This document shows, piece by piece, positions 20,675 through 64,000 of a stretch of 64,000 nucleotides of DNA. The translations under genes and the position numbers were made by a program. Within the stretch, counting starts at the first letter, position 1. Each line of letters begins with the position of its first letter. Below the pieces are notes generated by a model. That model worked only from the letters and a program-made list of their open reading frames with translations. It searched no databases and was not told the DNA's origin. This DNA comes from Prostheceraeus crozeri (lineage: Eukaryota; Platyhelminthes; Polycladida; Euryleptidae): contig CAJQUW010003051.1 in assembly GCA_907163375.1 (NCBI GenBank), positions 92,614 to 156,613 on the forward strand. Reading direction: 5' to 3'.

Positions 20675-22700
20675 CATGATGGCCGCCGTCGGTCCGACTC
20701 CCCCCACGCCTCTGTTCGCAGAGTGTTCCGTGGTCGGCCCGGCCGTGGTGCTTTGATACTAAAAGTCCTTCCCCCCTGTCCCTCGTGGCTTATCAGACTG
20801 CGCCTCTGGTGGCTTCTACCCTCTCTCTGGACGACCGCCGATTTGCGCCGCGTTATTTGAGGGATCTGTCTAGGTATGGCGGGTGTGTGGCCGGCCAGTG
20901 TGTGGCGTGCTGTGCCGGCCCAGGTTGGGAGGGTGGGACTGTCGTTAGCTCACCTGAAAAATTTTACACTAAGTGTCCATCTGAGTGGCTTTGTAATGGG
21001 TTAATAAGTTTTTGTAAATTTATCCAAAGTGTAGGACATTTTCGACCTGAGATTGGAATTGACCGTCTCACCATCACATCTTTTCATTCAAATATTCTAC
21101 ACGGAACTGCCCCTCACCCCTGTCCCCTCCTCTTCTAACTTTGGTTCTAGTGAACGATATTTTGTTCTTAAAGGCGTACTCGTTTGAAAGAGGAAGTCAA
21201 AAACTGCTCGACGGACATTTGTTTGTTCACCGAGTCAATCATATTAAAGATCACAAATGATATCAAACAATCGCTGAGGAGGTCCAGCTATAATGATCTC
21301 CGTTCAAAAGTTTGGAGCCCTGGATTATTACAAAAGATTTCCAGGTCGGAGGTCGCTCACCTGAAAACGGAAAATATCCTAACGTGTCCAGAGTGGACCT
21401 TTGTATGGGTTAATATTATTTTTCAAATTTTGCGAAAACTTTTCCAAAGTGGTGTGGAATTTCGACCTGGGACCCGTCACCAAAACTAATTTTTTACAAT
21501 TACAAAATTTTTCAAAACACGGACCCCCGCCACCCCCTACCCTCTCTAAACTTTGGTTCTAGTGAACGGATTTTGTTCTTAAGGCTACTCGGTTCTGCAA
21601 AGGAAGAAGAAAAACTGCTCGACGAACATTTTTTGTTCGCGATAAATCAATCGCGACTCCAGTATGCAGAACACACCCATAGCTTGCCGTTCAAAATTAA
21701 GAGCTGTTATAATATCAAGATTTTTAAGAGTCGGACGGTCGCTCACCCTGACAATAAATTCCTAATATGTCAGAGTGGGCTTTGTATGGGTAAAATTTCT
21801 GTTTGAAAGACTGAATTATTCCAAATGTGGACATTTCGTTCCTGGGACCGACACCCAAAAACATATTTTTCAATTCCAAATTTTCTAATCACGGGAACCC
21901 CCAAAACCCCCTCTTCTAAACTTTGAGTTTCTCATGTTCTAGTGAATATCGGATTTTTGTCTTAATATTGCTATCTCGTTTGAAAAGAGGAGAAAAAGAC
22001 TGCTCGGACGAACTATTTTTTGTTCGCTGAGTCAACTCGACGGAAGCCCAGTGAGCCGTTCAAAAAAGTTAGAAGTCTGTGTACATTAGATTTTAGGTCG
22101 AGCTCGGAAGCTCGCCTTAAGCTCTCGATCACCTGATTAAAAATCCTAAGTGTCAGAGGTGACTTTGTAATGGAGTAAAATTTCTGTGAGAAATTTTAGT
22201 CACCAAACAGTTGTGAAATTTTTCGACTCGCAACCTGGAAGGAAACCGTCACCAAAAACATTTTTTTCATCAAATTTCACGGACACACCCCCCGCCTCCG
22301 TCCCGCGCCCTCGGGAGAAGCTCGCTTACGAGTCTTGGCTTCTAGTGACGGATTTTTCTGTTCGTGGCAATAGCTCGTTTGAAAAAGCTAAGAGATGAGG
22401 ACATAATTCACTGAAAGGAAACGATGTGTTCCATTATCTGTCTTCGTATCAAAAGTTAGAGCGGTTTTACATATCAATGCATTTTAGGTCGGAGCTCGCT
22501 CACCCTGAAATTTAATCCTAAATGTCAGAGTGGACTTGGGGTATGGGGTAAAGCGATTTCTGAAAATTTTCCGTTAGCTGTGGAATTTCGGCATCTACCT
22601 TGGGAGAGACATCCGTCAACAGAAACATTTACTCTGACTCATCAAATCTTCTTCTGAACGAGGGGGGGAGGTGGGGTCCGTTGAAATTGATGAAAAATGT
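20675..22700 (+). repeat. Polinton terminal repeat with ~385-bp tandem units (copy A)
   Basis: A GC-rich lead-in (GATGGCCGCCGTCG, then Gly/Cys-type GC repeats ending GGTTGGGAGGGTGG) is followed by about 4.5 tandem units. Units begin near 20948, 21355, 21741, 22125 and 22498, each around GCTCACCTGAAA. Shared words in each unit are CCTAAGTGTCAGAGTGG, GGAATTTCGACCTGGGACC, ACTTTGGTTCTAGTGAACGG and CTGCTCGACGAACATTTTT, in that order. Copies differ from each other mainly by indels. The same lead-in and one unit occur at 52.87-53.48 kb at the start of copy B. The last part also resembles the inner edge of copies A and B (ATCTGTCTTCGT). Confidence 0.78.
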
Positions 22701-26141: not shown

Positions 26142-26143
26142 AC

Positions 26144-36009: not shown

Positions 36010-36044
36010 TTTTATATTGCTGATCTGCAACTTTGCATAACATC
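36010..36044. promoter_or_regulatory. short divergent intergenic region with TATA-like box
   Basis: Only 35 bp separate the ATG of the penton-like gene (-) from the ATG of the first PC4-like gene (+). It contains TATATTGC and, on the minus strand, CAATATAAAAATG. Both promoters must overlap each other or the opposite coding region. The same spacing is kept in copy B (62737-62770). Confidence 0.4.
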
Positions 36045-36401
36045 ATGAAGACTTGGATTTTGGACTCTCTACAATATATCAGAGTTGATCGTGATGGAAA
36101 CGTACATTTCAAAAATTCTCATGGTCATACATCAAGAGGAATTACATTAACATGGCGACAATTTGTCAACCTCAATGATATCATGAGGGATTTGGAATAT
36201 TTTGAAACATTAAGATTCATCTCCTTGGGTGATCAAGTTTGGCTTCAACATTACAGAAATGAAATTCAAATCTACCATTCTCATTCCGCAAACTGTTTCT
36301 CATTTCGCAAATACAATTGGGAGAAGTATAGAAGATACATACATCGCTCCATCATGACATTTATTCGTCGTGAGTTCATCGCCCTACTATGCAAATCTTA
36401 A
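36045..36401 (+). CDS. PC4-like protein 1
   Basis: 118 residues from the ATG at 36045 (MKTWILDSLQYIRVD). The first half resembles the PC4/p15 single-stranded-DNA-binding transcription-cofactor fold: a 'DGNVHFKN' strand, then 'RGITLTWRQFVNLNDIMRDL', which is the pattern of strand, Gly-Ile-x-Leu, and helix seen in that family. The second half has 'GDQVWLQHYRNEIQIYHS' and ends 'WEKYRRYIHRSI'. It is a tandem paralogue of the next gene. PC4 proteins stimulate RNA polymerase II transcription with TBP and other factors. Here the neighbouring TBP-like gene makes a transcription role plausible, but assignment is by eye. Copy B keeps this ORF intact. Confidence 0.48.
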   Translation: MKTWILDSLQYIRVDRDGNVHFKNSHGHTSRGITLTWRQFVNLNDIMRDLEYFETLRFISLGDQVWLQHYRNEIQIYHSHSANCFSFRKYNWEKYRRYIHRSIMTFIRREFIALLCKS

Positions 36402-36423: not shown

Positions 36424-37074
36424 ATGAGTTGGAAATTAGATTCCCTACAACGTATTGAAACGGATCATGATCGAAACGTCTATTTCAAAGATTCAACTGG
36501 AAATGTGAGAAGAGAGTTTGCTTTATCTTATCGTCATTTTCAATCTCTACATCATATCATGAAGGACTTGAAATACTTCTATATGAAAAGACATTCACGT
36601 ATTGGAAATCGCATCTGGCTGCGCGTCAACAATCGGCGAATTCAACTCTATCATTCCCAACTTCATACTAACTTCACATTTCATCAAGGTAGTTGGGAAA
36701 AGTATAAAAGGAAGGTACATCGCTCAATTTACTCATTCTTTCATCATGAAGCGCCATCGCTACACCATCGTCAACATTCTCCGTCGCTTCAGACTCTACA
36801 CCAAAATCGATCTCACAACATTACACCAACAGCTTCCAAACAGCAAGTATTACCCGGGCCGTCCTCAAATGTTAGTGGTGAAGATGAACAATTCACGGAA
36901 TCTTCAACTCTTCCCAAATGGGACTGTACAGATTCTCGGCGCCCTTTCTCATTCATCGGCGCAGTCAATGCGCTTAGAGCTACAGAGACTACTACGTCGG
37001 ATATGGAAGAGGGAGAGGTGTGTGATGTCGAATCTGACTGTGGACAATATGGTGATCTCTACTCAATTGAGTGA
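36424..37074 (+). CDS. PC4-like protein 2 with C-terminal extension overlapping the TBP-like gene
   Basis: The first ~110 residues align with PC4-like protein 1 throughout: LDSLQ at the start, 'ALSYRHFQSLHHIMKDLKYF', 'GNRIWLRVNNRRIQLYHS' and 'WEKYKRKVHRSI'. The gene starts 22 bp after the stop of its paralogue, indicating tandem duplication. After residue ~108 the frame stays open for another ~108 residues (Ser/Thr/Pro-rich, then acidic MEEGEVCDVESDCG). This part overlaps the TBP-like ORF by 329 bp in a different frame. The extension may be a passive open frame, as the paralogue stops at the equivalent point. In copy B an indel fuses this gene with the TBP-like frame. Confidence 0.45.
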   Translation: MSWKLDSLQRIETDHDRNVYFKDSTGNVRREFALSYRHFQSLHHIMKDLKYFYMKRHSRIGNRIWLRVNNRRIQLYHSQLHTNFTFHQGSWEKYKRKVHRSIYSFFHHEAPSLHHRQHSPSLQTLHQNRSHNITPTASKQQVLPGPSSNVSGEDEQFTESSTLPKWDCTDSRRPFSFIGAVNALRATETTTSDMEEGEVCDVESDCGQYGDLYSIE

Positions 37075-37291
37075 CAGTCTATCATTTTTGAAGATTCGTA
37101 CCAGCAGTTACAGTTTGTGTTATGAACCCGAACTTTTTCCTGCAGCTCTCATTAGTTGTTGGTTACCTGTGCATGTGGCAATCTTTCATAATAGTAAAGT
37201 GATCATTACTGGACTAAAATCTCATGTACAAGCAAATGTGATCCTAGACTATCTCATTGAGTATGTACGTACCCAGCGGATTGTAAAATAA
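36746..37291 (+). CDS. TATA-binding-protein-like core protein (two-repeat)
   Basis: 181 residues from ATG (MKRHRYTIVNILRR), the length of a TBP core. Two repeats about 90 residues apart are visible. Repeat 1 has 'NSKYYPGRPQMLVV' (32-45) and 'LQLFPNGTVQILGA' (53-66). Repeat 2 has 'YEPELFPAALI' (126-136) and 'VAIFHNSKVIITGLKS' (144-159). In TBP these blocks form the DNA-binding saddle, and paired Phe residues kink the TATA DNA. Here F131 and F147 are at the expected places in repeat 2 and F56 in repeat 1, but the other repeat-1 Phe is replaced (Pro40/Gln41). No N-terminal extension is present. It lies on the strand opposite the virion genes, just downstream of two PC4-like genes, and its stop is 26 bp from the protease stop. 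It would recruit transcription machinery to element promoters; that is inference. Confidence 0.7.
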   Translation: MKRHRYTIVNILRRFRLYTKIDLTTLHQQLPNSKYYPGRPQMLVVKMNNSRNLQLFPNGTVQILGALSHSSAQSMRLELQRLLRRIWKRERCVMSNLTVDNMVISTQLSDSLSFLKIRTSSYSLCYEPELFPAALISCWLPVHVAIFHNSKVIITGLKSHVQANVILDYLIEYVRTQRIVK

Positions 37292-37317: not shown

Positions 37318-37779
37318 TTATTTCAAATCATGATAGAACTTACAAATCATTTTTTCATTAGAGGATGGATTACATGAAAAGTTTTGAATAATAGATGCAA
37401 ATCGAGATACATGTAAACGTTTTAAGATGAAGTACAGTACAAAAGCACCACACGTTGATGAAAGTGGATGTTGTAGTATGCGTTCATTTCGCTGATATTG
37501 ACGCGTATGTTTTCTCAACCACTGCTGTGTTGGTATATTTGGAGGTTGAGCAAGAGAGTCAAATAGTTCACCACGTCGGTCTTCTCCAATAAAGATCGCT
37601 TTCCAATGCTCACCGCCTAAATTCTGCGAATGAGTGTTTAGCACAATAAAGATGGGATAGTGATTTACTGCAGGTGGTAAGGTATCGAGTGAATAGACAT
37701 TATCGAAAGCTTTCAACGTCGCTTCGTCTGCATTACGCTGCACTTTAGTCTTAATATCGTCAGCAGTCAACCAACTCAT
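37318..37779 (-). CDS. adenain-type (C5/ULP-like) maturation protease
   Basis: A 153-residue cysteine protease with the adenovirus-protease/SUMO-protease fold. The expected catalytic residues are all present: His58 in 'NLGGEHWKAIFIGED', Asp74 in 'RRGELFDSLAQPP', Gln103 in 'ERILQHP', and Cys110 in 'SSTCGAFVLYFILKR'. Such proteases process capsid and core precursors during virion assembly. The length is slightly short for the family (about 200) but the core is complete. Its ATG overlaps the major capsid stop (TAATG), so the two are tightly linked. It ends tail to tail with the TBP-like gene. Confidence 0.9.
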   Translation of the reverse strand: MSWLTADDIKTKVQRNADEATLKAFDNVYSLDTLPPAVNHYPIFIVLNTHSQNLGGEHWKAIFIGEDRRGELFDSLAQPPNIPTQQWLRKHTRQYQRNERILQHPLSSTCGAFVLYFILKRLHVSRFASIIQNFSCNPSSNEKMICKFYHDLK

Positions 37780-39056
37780 TAACGATTATACTGAAGAATC
37801 ACGTCACGATACTTTGTAATTTCAATATTTGAATCGAAGACTGCATAAATTAATACATTGATCGTCTCAGGTAGTGTTCTTTTGAACGTCAAATCCAAAC
37901 GAATATTATGAGGCACGTTCGCTTGACGATAGGGTGCACTAATATCGCTGTCAGCAGTCAAATCAAATGCATAAATAGTATATCCACTCTTAAACTCTTT
38001 CATAGTCAGTCCGTTGGTGTCATCCGTATTGTAAAAGCCAAAGACATCCATAAAATCAACATAACTGCGCATAAATTGATCCGAAGCAAAATCTGGTTTG
38101 TAGGGTGGACCAGGATGACTCACACCATTTACACGTAAAGCAATTTCACTTAACTGATTGTGTTTAAAATTGAAAGGATTCTTCTTTATATTACCATTAA
38201 ATGCATCATTTTCAACCATTGCCACCATGAGGAGCTTCGGTGCTTCCGATGGAAAGAGGCCATCTTTCATGAAACTCTTTTGATCTTTCGGAATTGTAAA
38301 GGTGAGAAGCTTTGTATGCTGAACGGGGTAAATGGCATTTTGGCGGTTAAGGCCTTCAGCATGCCCTCTAATGACACTTGGATTCGGTACTACTCGACGA
38401 ATGTAAAGTGCAATATCTTCCACATGAATTCTAAAATTGTCAACTTTAGCAAATGCATTCAGCGCAAATTCAGGCTTATTCAATGTCAGCTTGAGTCGCA
38501 TGCTGGTATTACAGAGTAAAAACTTTGACTGTCTAAAGAAGTCTAAATTCAGCGGACCATATAGCTGACATACTCTACTATCTTTAATCATAGCAGATCG
38601 CTTTACAAAGCCACTGTTTGTTTCAACATCAAATTTTCCTGCTTCATCTCTGTACCATCCCATGGCTTCCATATGACTTTTTTGTGCTGCTGGATGAAAC
38701 TGTGATACATGATTGAAATATGATTTATAGGGATAATCGCTTTGACCACCTTCCACCTGCTGCTCTCCAATCGTTAGAGAAACATCGCGAAGTAATGTAG
38801 TCAATGGTAAATTGTTCAGTCCAACTTTATGTGCATCGTCAATAGCAGTTCCATCTGCTTGCTGAATTCTAAACCTCAAATCAAGCATCGCATAACTCAA
38901 ATCTATGTAGTCATCACTACCACCAGGAATAACAAATTCAATGGGGCCAGCATTCTCAGCTGTTCGAGGATGATAATCTACAATACTTGAACTAAGAATA
39001 TCTGTCTGTATGGCTTGTTGATCGAACAAACAAAAACCGGAAGTTTTACACTCCAT
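37779..39056 (-). CDS. major capsid protein, Polinton PY / F54H12.2-like
   Basis: 425 residues, intact. The N-terminal half has 'GPIEFVIPGGSDDYIDLSYA' followed by a strand pattern MLDLRFRIQ and 'LTTLLRDVSLTIGEQQVEGG', the signature of the protein annotated F54H12.2-like across invertebrates, which corresponds to the Polinton double-jelly-roll major capsid protein. 'YPYKSYFNHVSQFHPAAQKS' and C-terminal 'NVPHNIRLDLTFKRTLPETI' are also typical. Trimers would form the hexons of an icosahedral particle. It is placed between a basic core protein (2-bp gap upstream) and the protease (overlapping TAATG). Copy B has the same gene broken by two frameshifts or stops. Confidence 0.85.
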   Translation of the reverse strand: MECKTSGFCLFDQQAIQTDILSSSIVDYHPRTAENAGPIEFVIPGGSDDYIDLSYAMLDLRFRIQQADGTAIDDAHKVGLNNLPLTTLLRDVSLTIGEQQVEGGQSDYPYKSYFNHVSQFHPAAQKSHMEAMGWYRDEAGKFDVETNSGFVKRSAMIKDSRVCQLYGPLNLDFFRQSKFLLCNTSMRLKLTLNKPEFALNAFAKVDNFRIHVEDIALYIRRVVPNPSVIRGHAEGLNRQNAIYPVQHTKLLTFTIPKDQKSFMKDGLFPSEAPKLLMVAMVENDAFNGNIKKNPFNFKHNQLSEIALRVNGVSHPGPPYKPDFASDQFMRSYVDFMDVFGFYNTDDTNGLTMKEFKSGYTIYAFDLTADSDISAPYRQANVPHNIRLDLTFKRTLPETINVLIYAVFDSNIEITKYRDVILQYNR

Positions 39057-39514: not shown

Positions 39515-39555
39515 AGCTCAAACCCTAAACATTGTTAGTTACAACTTTGCATGAA

Positions 39556-40776
39556 TCACTGTCGATCACTTAGATGAAAGATGTCGGCACGACGCATCCA
39601 AGAGTTCATACTTGAAGGATAACCAGTCCATTTAACAAGACACCATTCTTCACCTTGCCGTTTTTTACATCGAATGATTTTCTCTACCAAATATGTTTCA
39701 CTTTCAGTGACTACCTCAATCTCATCGCGGTAAAAGCTACCCTCAATTTCTTCATTATCGTAATCTTTCAACTTGTAGGTGGTCGGAGAGTCTTTTTGAT
39801 TAATCCTTGATACTGTAAATACCTCCTCTGTCCAATTCGGAAGGTACCCTTTAGCAAAAACACTTTTCACTTTTGAGATACGAACTTTATCGCCAATTTT
39901 CACATCACTTTTCACATGAGTGCGTTTACGTTGGAATGATTCGCGCACTTTATCTACATTGTCAGCATTTACATCTACTGGTCTGAGTCCAATAGAACGA
40001 TGGATAGAGTGATTGTAGGCATGGAGTGTATCTTGTAGAACCTTTGTCCAATTTTGTGTCAAGTTGGCAGTAAAATGTCGCCACAAGCGATTTTTTAATG
40101 TGCGATTAAAACGTTCAACGAGTGCAGCTTTATAAGCGCTCTTTACACTAAACAACTCAATGTCATGCCTCTCAAATAATCTTGTCACATGCTGATTTTC
40201 AAACTCTTTTCCTTGATCACTCTGAATTCTTTTTGGAATGCGACCTTCTCGAAAAATTGTTTGGAATGCTTTTGCTACTCCTTTCCCTTCTTTAGTTTTT
40301 AAAGGTTGAGCCCACGCATAACGCGAGAAAATATCAATGACGGTTAAAATAAAATTATTGCCCGAGTTATGTTTTGAAATGGAGGCAACATCACACAAAT
40401 CTGCTTGCCACTGTTCATCGATGTCATGAACAATATAATGGCGGGTGCGGTACTTCTTTTTCGCTTGTTTGTGGAGTGTATAGGTAGCCTGACCCTTTAA
40501 CCATCGTTTCACTTGTGATTGTGGAAGACCACTCGCTTTTGATAATTTCTTGATAGATGCAAATCCTGCCGGATGTTTTACATCATAATAGATTGACTTC
40601 AAACGTTCAGTCGATGACGACTGACTCTTTTTCCTCCTTCTCATCTTTTTGTTTTCTTGCCTTTCTACATTTACAACAACTGCAGCATTTAGCTTTAGCG
40701 GTTTTGCGATCGTGTTCACATTGCTTAGGGGTTTCATTATGAGAGCTGGCGCAGCAAGTGCAAGTGACAACGACAT
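39556..40776 (-). CDS. int: retroviral-type integrase with chromodomain
   Basis: 406 residues. The catalytic core has Asp126 in 'EQWQADLCDVASISK', Asp187 in 'IPKRIQSDQGKEFENQ' and Glu221 in 'KAALVERFNRTLKNRLW', i.e. a complete D-D-E set. Preceding it is a helix-turn-helix-like 'FASIKKLSKASGLPQSQVKR'. An SH3-like basic region follows ('KIGDKVRISKVKSVFAKGYL'), then a chromodomain ('YLVEKIIRCKKRQGEEWCLV', ending KWTGYPSSMNSW). This is the c-integrase of Polintons, inserting the linear DNA with a target duplication. The first ~45 residues (MSLSLALAAP..) overlap a Cys-rich frame and may not be translated; ATG at residue 45 (MRRRKKSQ) is an alternative start. Confidence 0.92.
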   Translation of the reverse strand: MSLSLALAAPALIMKPLSNVNTIAKPLKLNAAVVVNVERQENKKMRRRKKSQSSSTERLKSIYYDVKHPAGFASIKKLSKASGLPQSQVKRWLKGQATYTLHKQAKKKYRTRHYIVHDIDEQWQADLCDVASISKHNSGNNFILTVIDIFSRYAWAQPLKTKEGKGVAKAFQTIFREGRIPKRIQSDQGKEFENQHVTRLFERHDIELFSVKSAYKAALVERFNRTLKNRLWRHFTANLTQNWTKVLQDTLHAYNHSIHRSIGLRPVDVNADNVDKVRESFQRKRTHVKSDVKIGDKVRISKVKSVFAKGYLPNWTEEVFTVSRINQKDSPTTYKLKDYDNEEIEGSFYRDEIEVVTESETYLVEKIIRCKKRQGEEWCLVKWTGYPSSMNSWMRRADIFHLSDRQ

Positions 40777-40823: not shown

Positions 40824-41516
40824 TTAATAGTCTGAGAACATGTATTTCCTGGGAGGAGCTGTTTTACGTTTTCCTTTTACCAGTTTTAGTGGCGATGTAG
40901 ATCTACGTCGAGTTCTTCCTCTTGTTTGCTTAGTGAGTGTGGGAGGGGATGTAGCAGGTGACGTCTTAAACCAATTTGTTGGCATTTTCATCGTCTGAAG
41001 CATTGGAGTAGTAGCCACTGTTGAATCAAGTTCTTTCAATGTCTCATTATTCAAAGCAAATTTTGGCACATTATGCTTTTTCAATAGTTTAAGAAAGTAT
41101 GACCAACCAGGTGGAACATAGCCCTGACGGCGCTTTCTACGTGTCGCATACTGAATCAAGTCTTCATAACGTGAAGCATCAATCACTTTATTTTCATCTG
41201 TAATGATTTCTCCTCTATCATTTACATTGAGATGGGGTTCAATACTGTTGAAAAGAGATATGGCATGTGCGCGAGATGCTAAAGGTGTAGCAGTCGATAC
41301 AGAGTCACGCATCTTATTCTTCAAGTTTTTCAATTGCTCAACAGTTTCCGATTGTAATAATACAGCACGATGTGGATCTTTGATGTGAACATTTTGCTGA
41401 TAATCTATTTCTTTCCTATACATTTGATTTGCAAGAGGTTGCTTTACTTGCTGCATGGCAGTCAATTGTACATATTCATCCTGAGGAATAACAATCATGC
41501 GAGAATAAGAACTCAT
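40824..41516 (-). CDS. conserved Polinton protein of unknown function (230 residues)
   Basis: An intact frame whose ATG overlaps the ATPase stop by four bases (ATGA), so co-expression is likely. The N-terminus (MSSYSRMIVIPQDEYVQL) and the central 'YEDLIQYATRRKRRQGYVPP', followed by Gly-Trp and 'FLKLLKKHNVP', recall a protein commonly found next to the ATPase in invertebrate Polintons. The C-terminal third is Pro/Thr/Arg-rich (RGRTRRRSTSP) and very basic, consistent with a DNA-associated virion protein. No enzyme motif is visible and no function is established from sequence. Confidence 0.6.
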   Translation of the reverse strand: MSSYSRMIVIPQDEYVQLTAMQQVKQPLANQMYRKEIDYQQNVHIKDPHRAVLLQSETVEQLKNLKNKMRDSVSTATPLASRAHAISLFNSIEPHLNVNDRGEIITDENKVIDASRYEDLIQYATRRKRRQGYVPPGWSYFLKLLKKHNVPKFALNNETLKELDSTVATTPMLQTMKMPTNWFKTSPATSPPTLTKQTRGRTRRRSTSPLKLVKGKRKTAPPRKYMFSDY

Positions 41517-42130
41517 AGTTTGTAGATAATCATGGGAGTTTTCAAAATATCACTTCGAAATCTAAATTCTTCCGGACACTCTTGCGTAAAGTCAATGAAT
41601 AAGTAACCGTATGGTTTTTCAGTAGCTGCTTGAAAAATTTCAATTAAGGCTTTTGATCCTCTGGGTGCAACTTGTCGCGCTAAAATTTCAAATTGACTTT
41701 TATCTCGCGGATTCTTGAAAATAGCATAATAGTGTGTATTCAGGTTTCGTGTACGAGCTTCTTTTCCATCAGGAAACAAATTTTGTGTGATATAGATGAT
41801 AAAACACCTTTTATGGTGTGCTGCGCGAGTGAACATATCTGTAACATCTTTTGAATTCTTACTTTCTTTTAATAAATCATCCAATACAACAACATCATTA
41901 GACTGAAGTTTATCCACTGGAATAATTCCTTCATGTCGAATAAAGTTGCGACTTTGCAATTCCTGAAACAGCGACGGTTGATAAATACCATAACACCAAA
42001 TCACTCGATTGATAGGTTCCTTAAACAACTCCCTTCTTTTATCCAATAAATTCAGCGTGAAAACAGTTTTACCTGCATGAGATGGACCTGATACAGTCAG
42101 AACTTTATCACATTGAAGTCTGAAATCCAT
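41513..42130 (-). CDS. FtsK/HerA-type genome packaging ATPase (A32-like)
   Basis: 205 residues from the ATG at 42130 (MDFRLQCDKVLTVSG). The open frame extends 16 codons further upstream without an ATG. Walker A is 'GPSHAGKT' (residues 15-22), Walker B 'DVVVLDDLL', and a third conserved block is 'FIIYITQNLFPDGKEARTRN' with the polar Gln-Asn typical of the family. It would pump the linear genome into preformed capsids. It follows the 118-residue core protein by 31 bp and overlaps the next gene. Copy B carries the same gene with several one-base insertions in homopolymers. Confidence 0.88.
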   Translation of the reverse strand: MDFRLQCDKVLTVSGPSHAGKTVFTLNLLDKRRELFKEPINRVIWCYGIYQPSLFQELQSRNFIRHEGIIPVDKLQSNDVVVLDDLLKESKNSKDVTDMFTRAAHHKRCFIIYITQNLFPDGKEARTRNLNTHYYAIFKNPRDKSQFEILARQVAPRGSKALIEIFQAATEKPYGYLFIDFTQECPEEFRFRSDILKTPMIIYKL

Positions 42131-42161
42131 TTTATTACTTTGAGACTCAACATTTGCATAA

Positions 42162-42518: not shown

Positions 42519-42569
42519 TTTCCGTGTTAGTCTTTGCTAAAACCTATCTTTACCACATTTGCATAGGTA

Positions 42570-43306: not shown

Positions 43307-43393
43307 GATCGCCCTTTATCTAACCCATCCATTGCATGAAAACAACAACTCTTCTCATAGTAACATTTATTGAATAACGGTAACAAGCATGCA

Positions 43394-52869: not shown

Positions 52870-53480
52870 GCAAGATGGCCGCCGTCGCTGACGTCCCCCC
52901 CCCTCCTGTCAGTCGAGGTCGGTTCCGTGGGTGAGCCGCCGTATTGCTTCGAGTCTGACGTCCCCCCCTCCTGTCAGTCGAGTCGGTCGTTGTGGTGTGG
53001 CCGCCGTGTTGCTTCGAGTTCTGGACGTCCCCCCTCCTGTCAGTCGAGAGTCGGTCGTGGTGTGCCGCCCGTTGGTGCTTCGGAGGTCTGACGTCCCCAC
53101 CCTCTGGCCGGCCGTCGTTAGCGCGATGGTAAGGGTTGGTGTGTGATGCGCTCTCCAGGTTGGCGTGGTGTGCCGGCCAGGTTGGGAGGGTGGACTGTCG
53201 TAGCTCACCTGAAAAAATCCTAAGTGTCAGAGTGGCGTTGTATGGGTAAAATTTTGAAAATTTTCCAAAGTGTGGAATTTCGACCTGGGGACCCTGACCT
53301 AAGTTTGTTTCATCAAATTTCACGGAACCCCCACGACATCAATCTTCCAACTTTGGTTCTAGAGATCGTTAGAAAAGTCGTGATTGCAATAGTTCGATTG
53401 AAAGCTAAGAGTGAGACAAATTCAGTGAAAGAATCGGCTTGTTCCTATCTGTCTTCGTTTAGATGTGAGACGCCATTTAA
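52870..53480 (+). repeat. Polinton terminal repeats of copy B: 66-bp units plus one 385-bp-type unit
   Basis: GACGTCCCCCCCTCCTGTCA starts units at 52890, 52957, 53024 and 53090 (period 66-67 bp). GCCGGCCAGGTTGGGAGGGT and one copy of the larger unit of the 20.9-22.7 kb array follow (GCTCACCTG from 53203, TGTGGAATTTCGACCTGGG, AACTTTGGTTCTAG). It merges near 53.42 kb into sequence shared with copy A. The copy A lead-in has only traces of the 66-bp unit. Confidence 0.8.
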
Positions 53481-53656
53481 GATTTTGGGACATTGGGGGG
53501 GGGGACGAAAACGACAGAGTTAGAATAGAATTTCCCAAGAAACAGCTCAGCGGGCGAATGAAGTCTGAGGATTGGCTTTAACGGATGCCAGATTTTGGAA
53601 TCAACTTGATGTTATTGTCCAATGAGGATCGTCATCCAATGAGAATCAAGCATTTC

Positions 53657-53664
53657 TATATAAA
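53657..53664 (+). promoter_or_regulatory. TATA box (copy B)
   Basis: TATATAAATAGCGAGCC, identical in context to the box upstream of the 235-residue gene in copy A. Confidence 0.55.
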
Positions 53665-53767
53665 TAGCGAGCCTTCCACAGTTCGAGAATCATTCCATCG
53701 TTGAATCACACGAGTGACGGACGACATTTTTCTCTCTCTCTAGTTCCCTATTCTATTATCAACTAAA

Positions 53768-54553
53768 ATGGTAAGTCGCTACTTTCCTCCCTCTCCTCCT
53801 TGAACGTAAAACTTAATACAATCTTTTTCATTTTCAGGCATCTACTCCATCTGCTGCACTAGTAGGACAAAATGGCGGTCAAAACGTTACAAGGTTCGCT
53901 ACGATCAGATCATCTACTGAGGCCAGTGGAAGAAACAACCAAGGTACATAATCCTACACTGCTTACAGCGTAAATTTAAACAAGCCTTGCGTTTTATGAC
54001 GATTCATGGCGTAGTAACTCCAAATGCTCCCTTCCACGGATGTCAAGATAATGCACAATCAGTATGGGGACTACATACTGATCCCGTGAGTCCGTACCGT
54101 TCATTCGCCACCAATTGATATTATTGAGGAGTACGTGACATTTAAATATGGACATTCCTTACTACTCTTGCTCAAGAGTGGAAGGCTTAGAGATGACAAG
54201 GATACTCCCTATAGAAAGATTTGGGATGGTAATCACATTTGCCTACCGGTATCACATTGGGTGTTGTAATTTACTATAAGAAGGATGGAGATCATTCAAT
54301 ACCCATCAGATGTGATGAGCTCGGAGAAGGTACTTGGGATATCCTTTTCAAAGTGAATGGGCTATATTATGGTCGACACAAGGATAATAAAATAGCCTCT
54401 CTCTCCAATGCATATGGAATCCATCCTATATATTCCAAAACCACCCAACGTGGACGAGACATAATTGATCAAATCCTTAACAGCAGTGGTACGAAGCGCA
54501 AGTCGGAGAAGAATGCTGCATCAAAACGCAAATCAAAGAAGGAGATTTTCTAG
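53768..54553 (+). pseudogene. copy B of the 235-residue spliced gene, frameshifted
   Basis: The ATG|GTAAGT exon and TTTTCAG acceptor are preserved. The exon 2 frame is lost early by several indels. The last ~100 codons (54239-54553, 'EGTWDILFKVNGLYYGRH' onward) are open. Confidence 0.75.
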
Positions 54554-54587
54554 TCCTTTCCTAACTCTACCCTATGACAATTCGCTT

Positions 54588-54713
54588 ATGTGCTTTGAGT
54601 GTCGTTGACGTGGTCTTATTAGATACATTTTACTTCTTCGTTGCCATCATATCATTTGTGTATTTTGTCGTGAAAAGCATCGATGTAATTCTTCATTTTG
54701 TAATATGTTATAG
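54588..54713 (+). pseudogene. copy B of the mini RING-like gene, nonsense change
   Basis: Same length as in copy A, but the seventh codon is TGA where copy A has AGA (MCFECR then stop). This is a substitution, not a homopolymer indel, so it is evidence that the two copies are truly different sequences. Confidence 0.6.
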
Positions 54714-54765
54714 AACGTTTCCTTAGATGTGTAAATTTCCGTTTTAGGCTTCTATCATCATTTTT

Positions 54766-55304
54766 ATGGATTGTGAGGGTGAACCTGTACAGGAGCTCAG
54801 TGCTATTGCTATGAACAAATTGGACATATCAGATTGTTAGTGTCTATCATCAACATGCCAACTGCGGATCCATTGTTGATCAATGGGGCGAGGAAAACAC
54901 ATTCATGGACTTAATCTGAAATATTTGCTGGGAAAGACTATGGCTGTTCTGGTGAGCGTGCTCTTCGTATTGACTTTAAACGATGGTTAGCTGCTTTCAA
55001 TGTTATACGCATCTTTTGTAATAATCCTGGTAAGGAGAGGAAAGTATGTCCCAATCTAATCATTGATGATATTTTGCGCCCACCTTGGGATAGTAGAGTG
55101 AATCAACATTATCATGAAGTCACGAAACGTTTTAAGGATTTGTGTGTTCCTATTTTGTCTGTTCGTTGTAGTAGCTACGTTCATAACCAATGCTTCTTTC
55201 CTCCTTACCTCAACACTGGCAAAGTCCTGTATGGTTATCATTGCTCGCTGTATGATAGTTACCAGCTGTATCTATTTTATCTCTTTCAAACCATTGATTT
55301 ATAA
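54766..55304 (+). pseudogene. copy B of the DEDDh exonuclease-like gene, frameshifted
   Basis: The start MDCEGEPVQELSAIAM is kept, then frames alternate because of inserted bases. The C-terminal 76 codons containing H-x4-D are open (55074-55304). Confidence 0.75.
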
Positions 55305-55391
55305 TGCATGCTTGTTACTATTATTCAATAAATGTTACTATGAGAAGAGTTGTTGTTTTCATGCAATGGATGGGTTAGATAAAGGGCGATC

Positions 55392-55833
55392 ATGTCTTTC
55401 TCAAACGACTGCGGAAGTAACATTTACATTTTCATAGGCAAAGTTTAAAAGGAGCTGTTCAAGATTTATGTGATAAATTTTCATAATGATGAGACCGACA
55501 TCGAAGCAGTGGTCGATGATGCTGCACTCTATTTCTAGAGTTAATGAATACATTCTCTGATAGCATTATCATGGCGCGATTAGTTGCGAAAATTAAGTTT
55601 AGTCATTTTTGGAAAGGAAGAGGTGGAAAGTCGCTCTTTCCATTTTGCTTCTTATTCAATGGAAGTGGTAGATCACCCCAAAGAATTTTTTAAAAGACAT
55701 ATGATAAAAATTGCTGAACGCCTTAACGCATTTAACCATCATGGTAGCAGTCTAGTGATTGAAGCGATTTCAGATATTCACATTTGAAGCGATTTCAGAT
55801 ATTCACATTCAACTTTCCATAAAGAAAAATTGA
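55392..55833 (+). pseudogene. copy B of the 136-residue gene, frameshifted
   Basis: Homologous throughout, broken by indels. A 24-bp segment (GAAGCGATTTCAGATATTCA..) near the end is duplicated in tandem relative to copy A (about 55760-55808). Confidence 0.75.
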
Positions 55834-55835
55834 AA

Positions 55836-56163
55836 ATGCAGTGGTACTTGATTGTAGCACAACTGGTTTTCGAGCTATGTCTGCTCACTCTCGAAGTATA
55901 TTCCTTCTGTACATGCGTCTATTATTTAGAAAAGGCTAGCAAATTCATATCTTCAAAAAGACTTGCTATAGACATCAGTAACGGTGATGAAACTATGTGT
56001 TGCGATGTATGTAAGCGAAAGGATGGGAAATGAAAAGCGCATCTTCAAGAGATGTAAGCATGCTTTTGTCAACGCTGTTTCATACGTAATTGCATTCAAC
56101 TTTGCAAATGTAACCACTGTGATATTGCTTCATTTCGAGTGTCACTTATGTCGCAATAGTTAG
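55836..56163 (+). pseudogene. copy B of the membrane RING gene, frameshifted in the RING
   Basis: The membrane segment and first Cys pair (MCCDVCKRKDG) are in frame except one inserted Asp codon. The frame then shifts before the remaining metal ligands. Confidence 0.75.
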
Positions 56164-56216
56164 TACCTATGCAAATGTGGTTAAAGATAGGTTTTAGCAA
56201 AGGACTAACACGGAAA

Positions 56217-56588
56217 ATGGCGACGAAACGTAAAATGACGAAACGTAAAAAGTCAAAAAGTTTCAAAGTTTTCTTCAGCCATTCAAGCTCTCCGACGAAT
56301 GAAAGCAAATCAGCGATACAATGCTATACGACATGCTAACGATAAATTCATTTGTGAAATTATTTCTCATGTGAGGAAGTTGAGGACGAAGAAATTAGCG
56401 CCAAAACAACGAAAGTTACTTAAGCGATATGCTACAAAATTGCGTTTCATCTCCAATCCTAAAGTCACCCTTCAAAGAAAGAGGGAAACTCTAACACAAA
56501 AGGGTGGTTTCCTTTCAGCAATACTTCCAATGATAGCTCCTGCCGTGGGCAACCTATTGGGAAATATCTATTTGGCTCTAAGCGTTAA
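56217..56588 (+). pseudogene. copy B of the 118-residue core protein, frameshifted
   Basis: The first ~25 codons are shifted. From 56299 the frame is open and, owing to an insertion near the 3' end, reads through into the ATPase frame. Confidence 0.75.
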
Positions 56589-56619
56589 TTATGCAAATGT
56601 TGAGTCTCAAAGTAATAAA

Positions 56620-57242
56620 ATGGATTTCAGACTTCAATGTGATAAAGTTCTGACTGTATCAGGTCCATCTCATGCAGGTAAAACTGTTTTCACGCTGAAT
56701 TTATTGGATAAAAGGAGGGAGTTGTTTAAGGAACCTATCAATCGAGTGATTTGGTGTTATGGTATTTATCAACCGTCGCTGTTTCAGGAATTGCAAAGTC
56801 GCAACTTTATTCGACATGAAGGAATTATTCCAGTGGATAAACTTCAGTCTAATGATGTTGTTGTATTGGATGATTTATTAAAAGAAAAGTAAGAATTCAA
56901 AAGATGTTACAGATATGTTTCACTCGCGCAGCACACCATAAAAGGTGTTTTATCATCTATATCACACAAAAATTTGTTTCCTGATGGGAAAAGAAGCTCG
57001 TACACGAAACCTGAATACACACTATTATGCTATTTTCAAGAATCCGCGAGATAAAAGTCAATTTGAAATTTTTAGCGCGACAAGTTGCACCCAGAGGATC
57101 AAAAGCCTTAATTGAAATTTTTCAAGCAGCTACTGAAAAACCATACGGTTACTTATTCATTGACTTTACGCAAGAGTGTCCGGAAGAATTTAGATTTCGA
57201 AGTGATATTTTGAAAACTCCCATGATTATCTACAAACTATGA
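56620..57242 (+). pseudogene. copy B of the packaging ATPase, frameshifted
   Basis: Walker A GPSHAGKT and Walker B DVVVLDDLL are intact in the first frame, which ends at an inserted A after residue ~90. Three more insertions follow before the frame recovers for the C-terminal third. Confidence 0.8.
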
Positions 57243-57936
57243 GTTCTTATTCTCGCATGATTGTTATTCCTCAGGATGAATATGTACAATTGACTGCCAT
57301 GCAGCAAGTAAAGCAACCTCTTGCAAATCAAATGTATAGGAAAGAAATAGATTATCAGCAAAATGTTCACATCAAAGATCCACATCGTGCTGTATTATTA
57401 CAATCGGAAATACTGTTGAGCAATTGAAAAACTTGAAGAATAAGATGCGTGACTCTGTATCGACTGCTACACCTTTAGCATCTCGCGCACATGCCATATC
57501 TCTTTTCAACAGTATTGAACCCCATCTCAATGTAAATGTTAGAGGAGAAATCATTACAGATGAAAATAAAGTGATTGATGCTTCACGTTATGAAGACTTG
57601 ATTCAGTATGCGACACGTAGAAAGCGCCGTCAGGGCTATGTTCCACCTGGTTGGTCATACTTTCTTAAACTATTGAATTGAAAAGCATAATGTACCAAAA
57701 TTTGCTTTGATAATGAGACATTGAAAGAACTTGATTCAACAGTGGCTACTACTCCAATGCTTCAGACGATGAAAATGCCAACAAATTGGTTTAAGACGTC
57801 ACCTGCTACATCCCCTCCCACACTCACTAAGCAAACAGAGGAAGAACTCGACGTAGATCTACATCGCCACTAAAACTAGTAAAAGGAAAACGTTAAAACA
57901 GCTCCTCCCAGGAAATACATGTTCTCAGACTATTAA
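57239..57936 (+). pseudogene. copy B of the 230-residue gene, frameshifted
   Basis: Same four-base overlap with the ATPase stop as in copy A. Breaks occur near 57410, 57680 and 57840. Confidence 0.75.
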
Positions 57937-57985
57937 TATGAAGCAGATGTGTTGCTTGCCATGTAATGAGCCGCCAGAGGTGTGA

Positions 57986-59215
57986 ATGTCGTTGTCACTT
58001 GCACTTGCTGCGCCAGCTCTCACAATGAAACCCCTAAGCAATGTGAACACGATCGCAAAACCGCTAAAGCTAAATGCTGCAGTTGTTGTAAATGTAGAAA
58101 GGCAAGAAAACAAAAAGATGAGAAGGAGGAAAAAGAGTCAGTCGTCATCGACTGAACGTGTGAAGTCAATCTATTATGATGTAAAACATCCGGCAGGATT
58201 TGCATCTATCAAGAAATTATCAAAAGCGAGTGGTCTTCCACAATCACAAGTGAAACGATGGTTAAAGGGTCAGGCTACCTATACACTCCACAAACAAGCG
58301 AAAAAAGAAGTACCGCACCCGCCATTATATTGTTCATGACATCGATGAACAGTGGCAAGCAGATTTGTGTGATGTTGCCTCCATTTCAAAACATAACTCG
58401 GGCAATAATTTTATTTTAACCGTCATTGATATTTTCTCGCGTTATGCGTGGGCTCAACCTTTAAAAACTAAAGAAGGGAAAGGAGTAGCAAAAGCATTCC
58501 AAACAATTTTTCGAGAAGGTCGCATTCCAAAAAGAATTCAGAGTGATCAAGGAAAAGAGTTTGAAAATCAGCATGTGACAAGATTATTTGAGAGGCATGA
58601 CATTGAGTTGTTTAGTGTAAAAGAGTGCTTATAAAGCTGCACTCGTTGAACGTTTTAATCGCACATTATTAAAAAATCGCTTGTGGCGACATTTTACTGC
58701 CAACTTGACACAAAAATTGGACAAAGGTTCTACAAGATACACTCCATGCCTACAATCACTCTATCCATCGTTCTCTATTGGACTCAGACCAGTAGATGTA
58801 AATGCTGACAATGTAGATAAAGTGCGCGAATCATTCCAACGTAAACGCACTCATGTGAAAAGTGATGTGAAAATTGGTGATAAAGTTCGTATCTCAAAAG
58901 TGAAAAGTGTTTTTGCTAAAGGGTACCTTCCGAATTGGACAGAGGAGGTATTTACAGTATCAAGGATTAATCAAAAAGACTCTCCGACCACCTACAAGTT
59001 GAAAGATTACGATAATGAAGAAATTGAGGGTAGCTTTTACCGCGATGAGATTGAGGTAGTCACTGAAAGTGAAACATATTTGGTAGAGAAAATCATTCGA
59101 TGTAAAAAACGGCCAAGGTGAAGAATGGTGTCTTGTTAAATGGACTGGTTATCCTTCAAGTATGAACTCTTGGATGCGTCGTGCCGACATCTTTCATCTA
59201 AGTGATCGACAGTGA
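57986..59215 (+). pseudogene. copy B of the chromodomain integrase, frameshifted
   Basis: Open pieces at 57986-58339, 58365-58634 and 58681-59121 cover the N-terminal, catalytic and SH3-like regions. The chromodomain is split by an inserted base near 59115. The upstream Cys-rich frame (ATG 57938) has a two-base insertion giving TGA. Confidence 0.82.
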
Positions 59216-59256
59216 TTCATGCAAAGTTGTAACTAACAATGTTTAGGGTTTGAGCT

Positions 59257-59714
59257 ATGAATCCAACTGCTCATTTTATTCACGACCCTCCTATGTAAGT
59301 GGTGGAGGACAAATTTACATCGGCGCTCGCCGCCAACGTGGAGGTAGCATACTTGGTGCACTGAAATCTGTTGTAGCACCTCTCATATCCAATGTCTGTA
59401 GATCTTTAAAACGAAATGTTTTAAGTAATGCCGTTGGCTTTGCTGGTGATGTTGCTAGTGATCTTTCCAGAGGTAGAAGTTTTAAGAGCAGTTTGTTGAA
59501 TCGTGGGAAGGAACGCGGTTTAAAAACATTGAAGCAGACCATTGCTGGTGTTACTCAAGGAAAGAAATCACCTAAACGAATGAATAAAGGAAGGAGGAAA
59601 CATCGCGGAGCTGGTAAGGTGCGATCTTCAGTCAAAAGGCATTCACGCAAACGTCGCAGAGGGCTCTAATCATTCATTCAGGCGCTAAACGACGACGCTG
59701 CTGATAACTTCTAA
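59257..59714 (+). pseudogene. copy B of the pVI/pX-like core protein, frameshifted
   Basis: Frame shifted near the start (after MNPT) and again near the end of the basic tail; the central ~130 residues are intact. Confidence 0.75.
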
Positions 59715-59716
59715 TC

Positions 59717-61001
59717 ATGGAGTGTAAAAAACTTCCGGTTTTGTTTGTTTGTTTGATCAACAAGCCATACAGACAGATATTCTTAGTTCAAGTATTGTAG
59801 ATTATCATCCTCGAACAGCTGAGAATGCTGGCCCCATTGAATTTGTTATTCCTGGTGGTAGTGATGACTACATAGATTTGAGTTATGCGATGCTTGATTT
59901 GAGGTTTAGAATTCAGCAAGCAGATGGACATGCTATTGACGATGCACATAAAGTTGGACTGAACAATTTACCATTGACTACATTACTTCGCGATGTTTCT
60001 CTAACGATTGGAGAGCAGCAGGTGGAAGGTGGTCAAAGCGATTATCCCTATAAATCATATTTCAATCATGTATCACAGTTTCATCCAGCAGCACAAAAAA
60101 GTCATATGGAAGCCATGGGATGGTACAGAGATGAAGCAGGAAAATTTGATGTTGAAACAAACAGTGGCTTTGTAAAGCGATCTGCTATGATTAAAGATAG
60201 TAGAGTATGTCAGCTATATGGTCCGCTGAATTTAGACTTCTTTAGACAGTCAAAGTTTTTACTCTGTAATACCAGCATGCGACTCAAGCTGACATTGAAT
60301 AAGCCTGAATTTGCGCTGAATGCATTTGCTAAAGTTGACAATTTTAGAATTCATGTGGAAGATATTGCACTTTACATTCGTCGAGTAGTACCGAATCCAA
60401 GTGTCATTAGAGGACATGCTGAAGGTCTTAACCGCCAAAATGCCATTTAACCCGTTCAGCATACAAAGCTTCTCACCTTTACAATTCCGAAAGATCAAAA
60501 GAGTTTCATGAAAGATGGCCTCTTTCCATCGGAAGCACCGAAGCTCCTCATGGTGGCAATGGTTGAAAATGATGCATTTAATGGTAATATAAAGAAGAAT
60601 CCTTTCAATTTTAAACACAATCAGTTAAGTGAAATTGCTTTACGTGTAAATGGAGTGTGAGTCATCCTGGTCCACCCTACAAACCAGATTTTGCTTCGGA
60701 TCAATTTATGCTCAGTTATGTTGATTTTATGGATGTCTTTGGCTTTTACAATACGGATGACACCAACGGACTGACTATGAAAGAGTTTAAGAGTGGATAT
60801 ACTATTTATGCATTTGATTTGACTGCTGACAGCGATATTAGTGCACCCTATCGTCAAGCGAACGTGCCTCATAATATTCGTTTGGATTTGACGTTCAAAA
60901 GAACACTACCTGAGACGATCAATGTATTAATTTATGCAGTCTTCGATTCAAATATTGAAATTACAAAGTATCGTGACGTGATTCTTCAGTATAATCGTTA
61001 A
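59717..61001 (+). pseudogene. copy B of the major capsid protein, broken
   Basis: A long frame from 59749 to 60450 ends at a TAA in place of the Tyr codon of copy A (one substitution). A further indel occurs near 60655, after which the C-terminal 114 residues are open. The first eleven codons are shifted. Confidence 0.82.
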
Positions 61002-61461
61002 TGAGTTGGTTGACTGCTGACGATATTAAGACTAAAGTGCAGCGTAATGCAGACGAAGCGACGTTGAAAGCTTTCGATAATGTCTATTCACTCGATACCT
61101 TACCACCTGCAGTAAATCACTATCCCATCTTTATTGTGCTAAACACTCATTCACAGAATTTAGGCGGTGAGCATTGGAAAGCGATCTTTATTGGAGAAGA
61201 CCGACGTGGTGAACTATTTGACTCTCTTGCTCAACCTCCAAATATACCAACACAGCAGTGGTTGAGAAAACATACGCGTCAATATCAGCGAAATGAACGC
61301 ATACTACAACATCACTTTCATCAACGTGTGGTGCTTTTGTACTGTACTTCATCTTAAAACGTTTACATGTATCTCGATTTGCATCTGTTATTCAAAACTT
61401 TTCATGTAATCCATCCTCTAATGAAAAAATGATTTGTAAGTTCTATCATGATTTGAAATAA
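61001..61461 (+). pseudogene. copy B of the adenain-type protease, frameshifted before the catalytic Cys
   Basis: His, Asp and Gln positions are in frame. One base is lost in the CATCC run just before the SSTCGA block, so the frame ends after 118 residues without the nucleophile. Confidence 0.82.
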
Positions 61462-61488
61462 AAACATCATGTTGGAAAAATTGTTTTT

Positions 61489-62036
61489 TTATTTTACAAA
61501 TCCGCTGGGTACGTACATACTCAATGAGATAGTCTAGGATCATATTTGCTTGTTCATGAGATTTTAGTCCAGTAATGATCACTTTTCTATTATGAAAGAT
61601 TGCCACATGCACAGGTAACCTACAACTAATGAGAGCTGCAGGAAAAGTTTCGGGTTCATAACACAAATTGTAAACTGCTGGTACGAATCTTCAAAAATGA
61701 TACACTGTCACTCAATTGAGTAGAGATCACCATATTGTCCACAGTCAGATTCGACATCACACACCTCTCCCTCTTCCATATCCGACGTAGTAGTCTCTGT
61801 AGCTCTAAGCGCATTGACTGCGCCGATGAATGAGAAAGGGCGCCGAGACTCTGTACAGTCCCATTTGGGAAGAGTTGAAGATTCCGTGAATTGTTCATCT
61901 TCACCACTAACATTTGAGGACGGCCCGGGTAATACTTGCTGTTTGGAAGCTGTTGGCGTAATGTTGTGAGATCGATTTTGGTGTAGAGTCTGAAGCGACG
62001 GAGAATGTTGACGATTGGTGTAGCGATGGCGCTCAT
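61489..62036 (-). pseudogene. copy B of the TBP-like gene, frameshifted
   Basis: Repeat 1 and the linker are read in one frame, fused upstream to PC4-like gene 2. Repeat 2 (YEPETFPAALI, 'RKVIITGLKSH') is in another frame. Several substitutions relative to copy A lie in repeat 2. Confidence 0.7.
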
Positions 62037-62357
62037 GATGAAAAAATGAGTAATTGAGCGATGTACCTTCCTTTTATACTTTTCCCAACTACCTTGATGA
62101 AATGTGAAGTTAGTATGAAGTTGGGAATGATAGAGTTGAATTCGCCGATTGTTGACGCGCAGCCAGATGCGATTTCCAATACGTGAATGTCTTTTCATAT
62201 AGAAGTATTTCAAGTCCTTCATGATATGATGTAGAGATTGAAAATGACGATAAGATAAAACAAACTCTCTTCTCACATTTCCAGTTGAATCTTTGAAATA
62301 GACGTTTCGATCATGATCCGTTTCAATACGTTGTAGGGAATCTAATTTCCAACTCAT
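62034..62357 (-). pseudogene. copy B of PC4-like gene 2, fused by indels to the TBP-like frame
   Basis: The PC4-like core (about 108 residues) is intact. Indels after HRSI change the following frame, so the C-terminal extension seen in copy A is not produced. Confidence 0.6.
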
Positions 62358-62379
62358 GGTGCGTGGTAATCATATCTGA

Positions 62380-62736
62380 TTAAGATTTGCATAGTAGGGC
62401 GATGAAATCACGACGAATAAATGTCATGATGGAGCGATGTATGTATCTTCTATACTTCTCCCAATTGTATTTGCGAAATGAGAAACAGTTTGCGGAATGA
62501 GAATGGTAGATTTGAATTTCATTTCTGTAATGTTGAAGCCAAACTTGATCACCCAAGGAGATGAATCTTAATGTTTCAAAATATTCCAAATCCCTCATGA
62601 TATCATTGAGGTTGACAAATTGTCGCCATGTTAATGTAATTCCTCTTGATGTATGACCATGAGAATTTTTGAAATGTACGTTTCCATCACGATCAACTCT
62701 GATATATTGTAGAGAGTCCAAAATCCAAGTCTTCAT
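62380..62736 (-). CDS. copy B of PC4-like protein 1, intact
   Basis: Same 118-residue length as in copy A, with only one or two amino-acid differences (RRDF for RREF near the end). The only longer gene of the block without a frameshift in copy B. See the copy A entry for domain reasoning. Confidence 0.5.
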   Translation of the reverse strand: MKTWILDSLQYIRVDRDGNVHFKNSHGHTSRGITLTWRQFVNLNDIMRDLEYFETLRFISLGDQVWLQHYRNEIQIYHSHSANCFSFRKYNWEKYRRYIHRSIMTFIRRDFIALLCKS

Positions 62737-62770
62737 GATGTTATGCAAAGTTGAGATCAGCAATATAAAA

Positions 62771-63845: not shown

Positions 63846-64000
63846 ATTATGGATAAAAAAAACCTCTAATGGGACTGTTTTGGGTTGTTTGAGTCAAAAT
63901 TCTTTAAACTGTTGTAGGTACTTGTAACCAAAGCTAGCGCAGACATGTCGCTATTCGCGTCGTTATTCACTATTTTTCAGATATTATTCCAATATTGGTG

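What the first reader, a model, noticed from the sequence alone, without database searches (positions are those of the whole stretch)
36746..37291. A Polinton-encoded TATA-binding-protein-like factor
An intact 181-codon ORF inside the virion gene block has the size and two-repeat layout of the TBP core. Equivalent blocks are about 91 residues apart ('LQLFPNGTVQILGA' and 'VAIFHNSKVIITGLKS'; 'NSKYYPGRPQMLVV' and 'YEPELFPAALI'). Three of the four DNA-kinking Phe positions appear kept. A capsid-encoding transposon carrying its own TBP would imply promoter selection independent of host TBP. I know of no described case in animal Polintons, though I cannot search.
Basis: partly seen in the sequence, partly recalled or inferred. 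Interest (0 to 1): 0.92.

Follow-up and report, generated by a model that had tools for sequence, protein, structure and literature searches.

The report
Capsid-encoding transposon carrying its own TBP
A virus-like jumping gene in a eukaryotic genome carries its own, reshaped version of TBP, the protein that marks where genes begin to be read, which suggests that it directs the reading of its own genes.

Summary
It has 61 unnamed metagenomic relatives, all with PF00352. Over the 62 proteins the C-terminal repeat keeps most canonical DNA and TFIIB contacts, with one Leu changed; the N-terminal repeat is rewired in one way throughout: kinking Phe to Pro, Leu and Val to Gln, Thr to Leu.
New here: a [TC]ATGCAA[AT] box lies 30-47 bases before 6 of 15 gene starts against 1 of 490 other ATGs; wider zones gave no significance. 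I propose, as inference, that this TBP reads such a non-TATA core promoter with host TFIIB and Pol II. TBP-capsid linkage in other elements was not shown. No earlier report was found in the held library.

The parts
36746..37291 (+). TBP gene, 181 aa, intact (P0001)
36424..36745 (+). upB, small protein of unknown function, paralogue of upA. Its ORF runs on in another frame over the TBP start as far as 37074
   Evidence: 43% identical to upA; relatives. Extent of the true C-terminus unknown.
36045..36401 (+). upA, 118 aa, unknown function; tandem paralogue of upB
   Evidence: 6 proteins found, the window's own included; P0184 shares longest-contig length 1771 with TBP P0002
35206..36009 (-). 267-aa ORF, a candidate minor capsid (penton-like) protein by position only
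   Evidence: ORF; no Pfam or NCBIfam match above cut-off
37318..37779 (-). probable Ulp1/adenain-type virion protease, tail to tail with TBP
   Evidence: Peptidase_C48 E 0.0013, 19.1 bits (cut-off 20.7); Peptidase_C5 E 0.044, 13.9 bits (cut-off 21.3)
37779..39056 (-). double-jelly-roll major capsid protein, 425 aa
39059..39514 (-). small basic core-like protein
   Evidence: sequence; no family above cut-off
39556..40776 (-). retrovirus-type integrase with chromodomain
   Evidence: rve 1.3e-10 and Chromo 6.2e-7
40824..41516 (-). 230-aa ORF; start overlaps the ATPase stop
   Evidence: no family above cut-off
41513..42130 (-). probable A32-type packaging ATPase
   Evidence: Pox_A32 E 0.022, 14.7 bits, below cut-off 22.8; P-loop-like GPSHAGKT read by eye
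36032..36039 (-). TATGCAAA box, 30 bases before the 36009 (-) start
36388..36395 (+). TATGCAAA box, 36 bases before upB (inside the end of upA, so it may be kept as coding sequence)
39546..39553 (-). CATGCAAA box, 39 bases before the core-protein gene that leads core-MCP-protease
42153..42160 (-). TATGCAAA box, 30 bases before the ATPase ATG
42558..42565 (-). TATGCAAA box, 47 bases before the 42518 (-) start
43331..43338 (-). CATGCAAT box, 32 bases before the 43306 (-) start
36703..36710 (+). ordinary TATA box (TATAAAAG), 43 bases before the TBP start, inside upB
   Evidence: may be chance
53406..63998 (.). second, inverted copy of the block (broken TBP frame, part of it in ORF 61656-62357 (-))
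   Evidence: 120 substitutions in 10374 aligned bases, 139 gap openings; Pfam TBP 3.9e-9 on the part ORF
22361..22447 (+). possible left terminal inverted repeat of copy 1 (right end about 45197-45249)
   Evidence: 83.7% over 43 bases, E 2e-4; alignments; weak

Best explanation
The ORF encodes a genuine TBP-family protein belonging to a Polinton/Maverick-type, capsid-encoding element. Shown: homology, the predicted saddle fold, an intact frame, the virion-gene setting, and a large family in which one set of residues is held constant. Inferred: the protein binds DNA as a saddle. Its C-terminal repeat grips the 5' half of a TATA-like box largely in the usual way and offers the usual E-x-E-L stirrup to the host's TFIIB. 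Its N-terminal repeat has a different, conserved groove surface (P40, Q54, Q62, L64) and so reads a different 3' half. I recognised no RNA polymerase among the element ORFs that I scanned, so the protein would recruit the host's TFIIB and Pol II to the element's own gene clusters and let them be transcribed as a class apart from host TATA genes. The best candidate box is [TC]ATGCAA[AT], found 30-47 bases before the first gene of several clusters. An ordinary TATA box before the TBP gene would let the host's TBP start the cascade.
Against: No binding or expression data. The C-terminal repeat is not wholly canonical: the recalled contact yeast L205 is Ala, Thr or Ser in 62 of 62, and V213 is Ile, Met or other in 58 of 62. 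The box was found after the fact in one element; with 150 bases no word exceeded shuffles, and with the zone -60 to -20 random sets did as well in 7.5%, 12% and 37.5% for three word sizes. ATGCAAAT is also the POU-factor octamer (recalled), so a host factor could bind it. Nine of 15 starts lack it, and several starts are my own choice of ATG. The two window copies show no purifying selection between them (20 silent, 47 replacing changes; TBP 0 and 10), so these insertions may be dead or noisily assembled. Several capsid relatives on long contigs have no paired TBP record, though gene calling may explain this.
Confidence: 0.68

Rival explanations
1. The protein is a transcription interference factor: it keeps the TFIIB-binding face but has damaged DNA recognition, so it titrates host TFIIB or blocks host promoters in favour of the element.
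For: TFIIB stirrup residues E127 and E129 are kept in 61 and 62 of 62, while a kinking Phe, neighbouring N-repeat contacts and one C-repeat Leu are replaced.
Against: The replaced positions are themselves highly conserved (P40 58 of 59, Q62 62 of 62), and the other three Phe and both dyad Asn are kept, which points to altered rather than lost DNA binding.
Confidence: 0.12
2. The TBP fold is used as a DNA-bending architectural protein in replication, packaging or integration, not in transcription.
For: It sits in the virion-gene block. A Rep protein (RepDE, 4cwc) appears far down the Foldseek list at TM 0.42, showing that loosely similar folds can do other jobs.
Against: Significant sequence similarity is to TBP alone and the TFIIB-contact motif is conserved, which a mere bender would not need.
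Confidence: 0.1
3. A host-derived passenger: a captured or exapted cellular TBP or TBP-related factor that happens to lie in a Polinton insertion.
For: Host genes are captured by large transposons (general knowledge).
Confidence: 0.05
4. About the box only, and compatible with a promoter role of the TBP: [TC]ATGCAA[AT] is bound by a host POU factor, and the TBP acts on ordinary TATA or TATA-less promoters.
For: ATGCAAAT is the textbook octamer (recalled). The TBP gene has TATAAAAG at -43.
Against: Box position (30-47 bases before the ATG; 6 of the 7 sites in the block so placed, on the gene's strand) suits a core-promoter element better than an enhancer.
Confidence: 0.35

Closest known systems
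Cellular TATA-binding protein (PF00352; human, yeast, archaeal)
   Same: Two-repeat saddle, both pseudo-dyad Asn, three of four intercalating Phe, C-terminal E-x-E-L-F-P stirrup
   Different: N-terminal repeat has Pro for the first Phe, Gln for Leu and for Val, Leu for Thr, as a family-wide set, and the C-terminal repeat has Ala, Thr or Ser for one Leu; no N-terminal extension; 19-26% identity
TBPs of giant viruses, asfarviruses and mirusviruses (Mimiviridae TBP, ASFV B263R)
   Same: Virus-encoded TBP-fold proteins; 48 BFVD matches at E<=0.001 include several so named. TBP is conserved in Mimiviridae (PMC3620924, passage read), in 59% of mirusviruses (PMC10132985, passages read), and proposed for B263R (PMC5825884, abstract read)
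   Different: Those viruses are far larger and (passages read for megavirus PMC11464507, and mirusviruses) also encode RNA polymerase subunits; I recognised none here among the ORFs scanned, and the listed structural matches are only 7-20% identical
Polinton/Maverick elements and adintoviruses
   Same: Double-jelly-roll capsid protein, rve integrase with chromodomain, protease-like and ATPase-like genes
   Different: No TATA or TBP in the main text of the nine Polinton, adintovirus, virophage or related papers in which I searched for those terms
Cymbomonas heliorhodopsin-containing mobile elements
   Same: Repeat-borne elements with sporadic TATA-binding proteins (PMC10675990, passage read)

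Membership tests
TATA-binding protein family (PF00352) | Profile match above the curated cut-off over both repeats | tested here: met
   71.6 bits against 22.9, two stretches
TATA-binding protein family (PF00352) | Pseudo-symmetric two-repeat saddle fold | tested here: met
TATA-binding protein family (PF00352) | Four intercalating Phe, as in canonical cellular TBP (positions recalled) | tested here: not met
   Three of four kept; the first is Pro in 58 of 59 family members with the position. So a variant within the family, not a canonical TBP.
TATA-binding protein family (PF00352) | TFIIB-contact residues in the C-terminal stirrup (recalled E284, E286, L287 of human TBP) | tested here: met
   E in 61 of 62, E in 62 of 62, L in 55 of 62
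TATA-binding protein family (PF00352) | Sequence-specific TATA binding and Pol II recruitment | not testable with these tools
   needs protein work
Polinton/Maverick | Double-jelly-roll major capsid protein | tested here: met
Polinton/Maverick | Retrovirus-type integrase | tested here: met
   rve 1.3e-10 plus chromodomain 6.2e-7
Polinton/Maverick | Adenain/Ulp1-type protease | tested here: inconclusive
   E 0.0013 but 19.1 bits, just under the cut-off of 20.7
Polinton/Maverick | A32/FtsK-type packaging ATPase | tested here: inconclusive
   Pox_A32 14.7 bits, under the cut-off of 22.8; no PDB sequence match better than E 0.13
[quoted passage not shown]
   Broken pieces at 31142-32238 (+) look like it by eye (recalled motifs, e.g. 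GGDTDSF), but three pieces had no Pfam match and the one tried in PDB none better than E 0.24
Polinton/Maverick | Terminal inverted repeats and 6-base target duplication | tested here: inconclusive
   Left/right similarity of 83.7% over 43 bases; target duplication not resolved
Giant-virus TBPs | Sequence membership of a giant-virus TBP clade | tested here: inconclusive
   Best BFVD structural hit 20% identical; no tree with them was made

The most novel reading that the evidence does not exclude
A small capsid-encoding transposon has evolved a private core-promoter system inside a Pol II cell: a TBP whose N-terminal half has been re-specified together with a new box, [TC]ATGCAA[AT], standing about 30 bases before the element's gene clusters, so that host TFIIB and Pol II are steered to element genes by an element-encoded TBP with no viral RNA polymerase.
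Probability: 0.25. Interest if true: 0.93.

Novelty: new variant of a known kind. Interest (0 to 1): 0.82.

Why it matters
Virus-encoded TBPs are known from large viruses, some of which (megavirus, mirusviruses, as cited) also bring RNA polymerase subunits. A TBP in an element with no recognisable polymerase would mean that a mobile element edits the first step of host transcription and brings its own promoter class. The half-conserved, half-rewired saddle is a natural experiment on how TBP reads DNA: one repeat mostly unchanged, the other changed in the same way in dozens of relatives. It makes testable how Polintons are transcribed. One term search for Polinton with 'promoter motif' listed 11 papers, none of them about Polinton promoters by title (listing only).

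Tried and rejected
Related loci: viral-contig scans with TBP and capsid protein and genome-contig scans with capsid and TBP alignments gave no relative, so gene order in other elements could not be read directly.

Contig-length pairing as a stand-in for linkage: TBP-upA 1771 (one pairing, about 0.06 expected by chance), capsid-upA 11119 and 12876 (0.04 expected; 12876 belongs to proteins identical to the window's own), TBP-capsid 7106 (0.49 expected, so worthless alone). Of 12 TBP records with a longest contig of 7 kb or more, only 7106 matched any of the 120 listed capsid records (263 found, 120 listed), so TBP-capsid linkage in relatives is not shown. The window's own TBP is missing from the hit list although its capsid and upA proteins are there with a 12876-base contig; the overlapping 216-aa ORF may win in gene calling (inference).

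Left as an unproven idea.

Selection between the two window copies: no constraint. Promoter word search over 150 bases: not significant. Over -60 to -20: 7.5-37.5% of 200 random sets did as well. Over -45 to -20: 0%, 1.5% and 2.0% of 200. Final test with 15 starts, zones -50 to -20 and -42 to -22: 0.1-0.4% of 1000. The zones were chosen after looking.

Tree: only two cellular references, support 0.415 at the family node, so origin is not resolved.

Full report

Family. A search of 5.8 billion proteins returned 61 relatives at E<=0.001, all carrying PF00352, 34-81% identical, none named. Twelve have a longest contig of 7-25 kb. In the alignment of all 62 with human and M. jannaschii TBP (site names recalled), the C-terminal repeat keeps yeast N159, V161 and F207 in 62 of 62, F190 and T215 in 61 of 62, and the TFIIB stirrup E284 in 61 of 62, E286 in 62 of 62 and L287 in 55 of 62. 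It does not keep L205, which is Ala (46), Thr (14) or Ser (2), and V213 is mostly Ile (44 of 62). The N-terminal repeat keeps N69 (50 of 50 present) and F116 (62 of 62), but F99 is Pro (58 of 59 present), L114 is Gln (58 of 62), V122 is Gln (62 of 62; already Asn in M. jannaschii), T124 is Leu (56 of 62) and V71 is mostly Met. Since in TBP-TATA complexes the C-terminal repeat contacts the 5' half of the box and the N-terminal repeat the 3' half (recalled), I infer a box with a near-normal 5' half and an altered 3' half.

Linkage in relatives. No relative could be fetched with its DNA. Indirect evidence: the closest TBP relative P0002 (81%) and a upA relative P0184 (79%) both report a longest contig of 1771 bases; about 0.06 such pairings are expected by chance. 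The extended N-terminus of P0003 resembles the window's upstream frame just before its ATG, as expected if an upB-like gene overlaps there too (and by eye). upA and capsid proteins share the lengths 11119 and 12876. TBP-capsid pairing is not shown: the single pairing (7106) is within chance.

Candidate promoter. [TC]ATGCAA[AT] occurs 7 times in copy 1 between 35.2 and 45.2 kb. Six lie 30-47 bases before gene starts on the matching strand: 36009 (-), 36424 (+), 39514 (-), 42130 (-), 42518 (-), 43306 (-). That is 6 of 15 starts against 1 of 490 other ATGs; the best word count is reached in 1 to 4 of 1000 random sets, depending on zone and control. Several genes without the box (MCP, protease, 230-aa ORF) start at or within a few bases of the preceding stop, as if read from the same transcript. 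Six corresponding places in copy 2 also carry it (places matched by position), but the copies are too alike to be independent. Wider zones were not significant, and the zone was chosen after looking. The word is also the POU octamer (recalled). The TBP gene itself has TATAAAAG at -43, inside upB.

Mechanism. Most likely the protein is a promoter-selecting TBP for the element's own gene clusters, working with host TFIIB and Pol II. Family, fold, conserved contacts and setting are shown; DNA specificity, TFIIB use and the cascade are inferred. Absence of an RNA polymerase rests on Pfam scans of the larger ORFs only; small ORFs such as the one starting at 42518 (-) were not scanned.

Known or new. 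TBPs are known in Mimiviridae (PMC3620924, passage), megavirus (PMC11464507, passage), mirusviruses (PMC10132985, passages) and proposed for ASFV B263R (PMC5825884, abstract). Searches pairing Polinton, Maverick(s) or virophage with TBP or TATA-binding terms listed no paper reporting a TBP in a Polinton as far as I read: the listing showed 40 of 98 papers, all 40 with zero TBP; of the papers listed by the other five calls I read passages of PMC10675990, PMC10132985, PMC11464507 and PMC3620924 and saw only listings of the rest. In-text term searches of PMC11071296, PMC11071308, PMC10120064, PMC4028283, PMC3671162, PMC8097293, PMC8363768, PMC4642659 and PMC7805220 found no TATA or TBP. The adintovirus proposal is not held; the founding Polinton papers were not looked up.

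Noticed in passing
window 36045-36401 and 36424-36745 (+): Tandem paralogues upA/upB (43% identical) beside TBP; a PC4-like core is conceivable by eye but hhalign gave probability 1.2%.
   Followed up: partly
window 9046-9630 (+) and 11136-12182 (-): Myb/SANT-like protein (E 3.4e-9) and a DDE_Tnp_4 transposase ORF (E 1.7e-34), a Harbinger-type pair (transposon name recalled).
   Followed up: no
window 12995-13127 / 13135-13267: Strong hairpin, 133-base arms, 93% complementary, 7-base loop.
   Followed up: no
window 20895-22590 and 53155-53287: Diverged repeat units shared between the left flank and the flank of copy 2, rich in single-base indels; may be part of a long terminal repeat.
   Followed up: partly
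window 31142-32238 (+): Broken pieces resembling protein-primed DNA polymerase B by eye, no Pfam match.
   Followed up: partly
capsid relative P0064: A protein 86% identical to the capsid protein is filed under a Pseudomonadota metagenome bin; probably a misbinned eukaryotic or viral contig.
   Followed up: no
window 24000-28000: Sharp swing of GC skew from +0.24 to -0.20, with repeats at 25.1, 25.6 and 26.5 kb.
   Followed up: no
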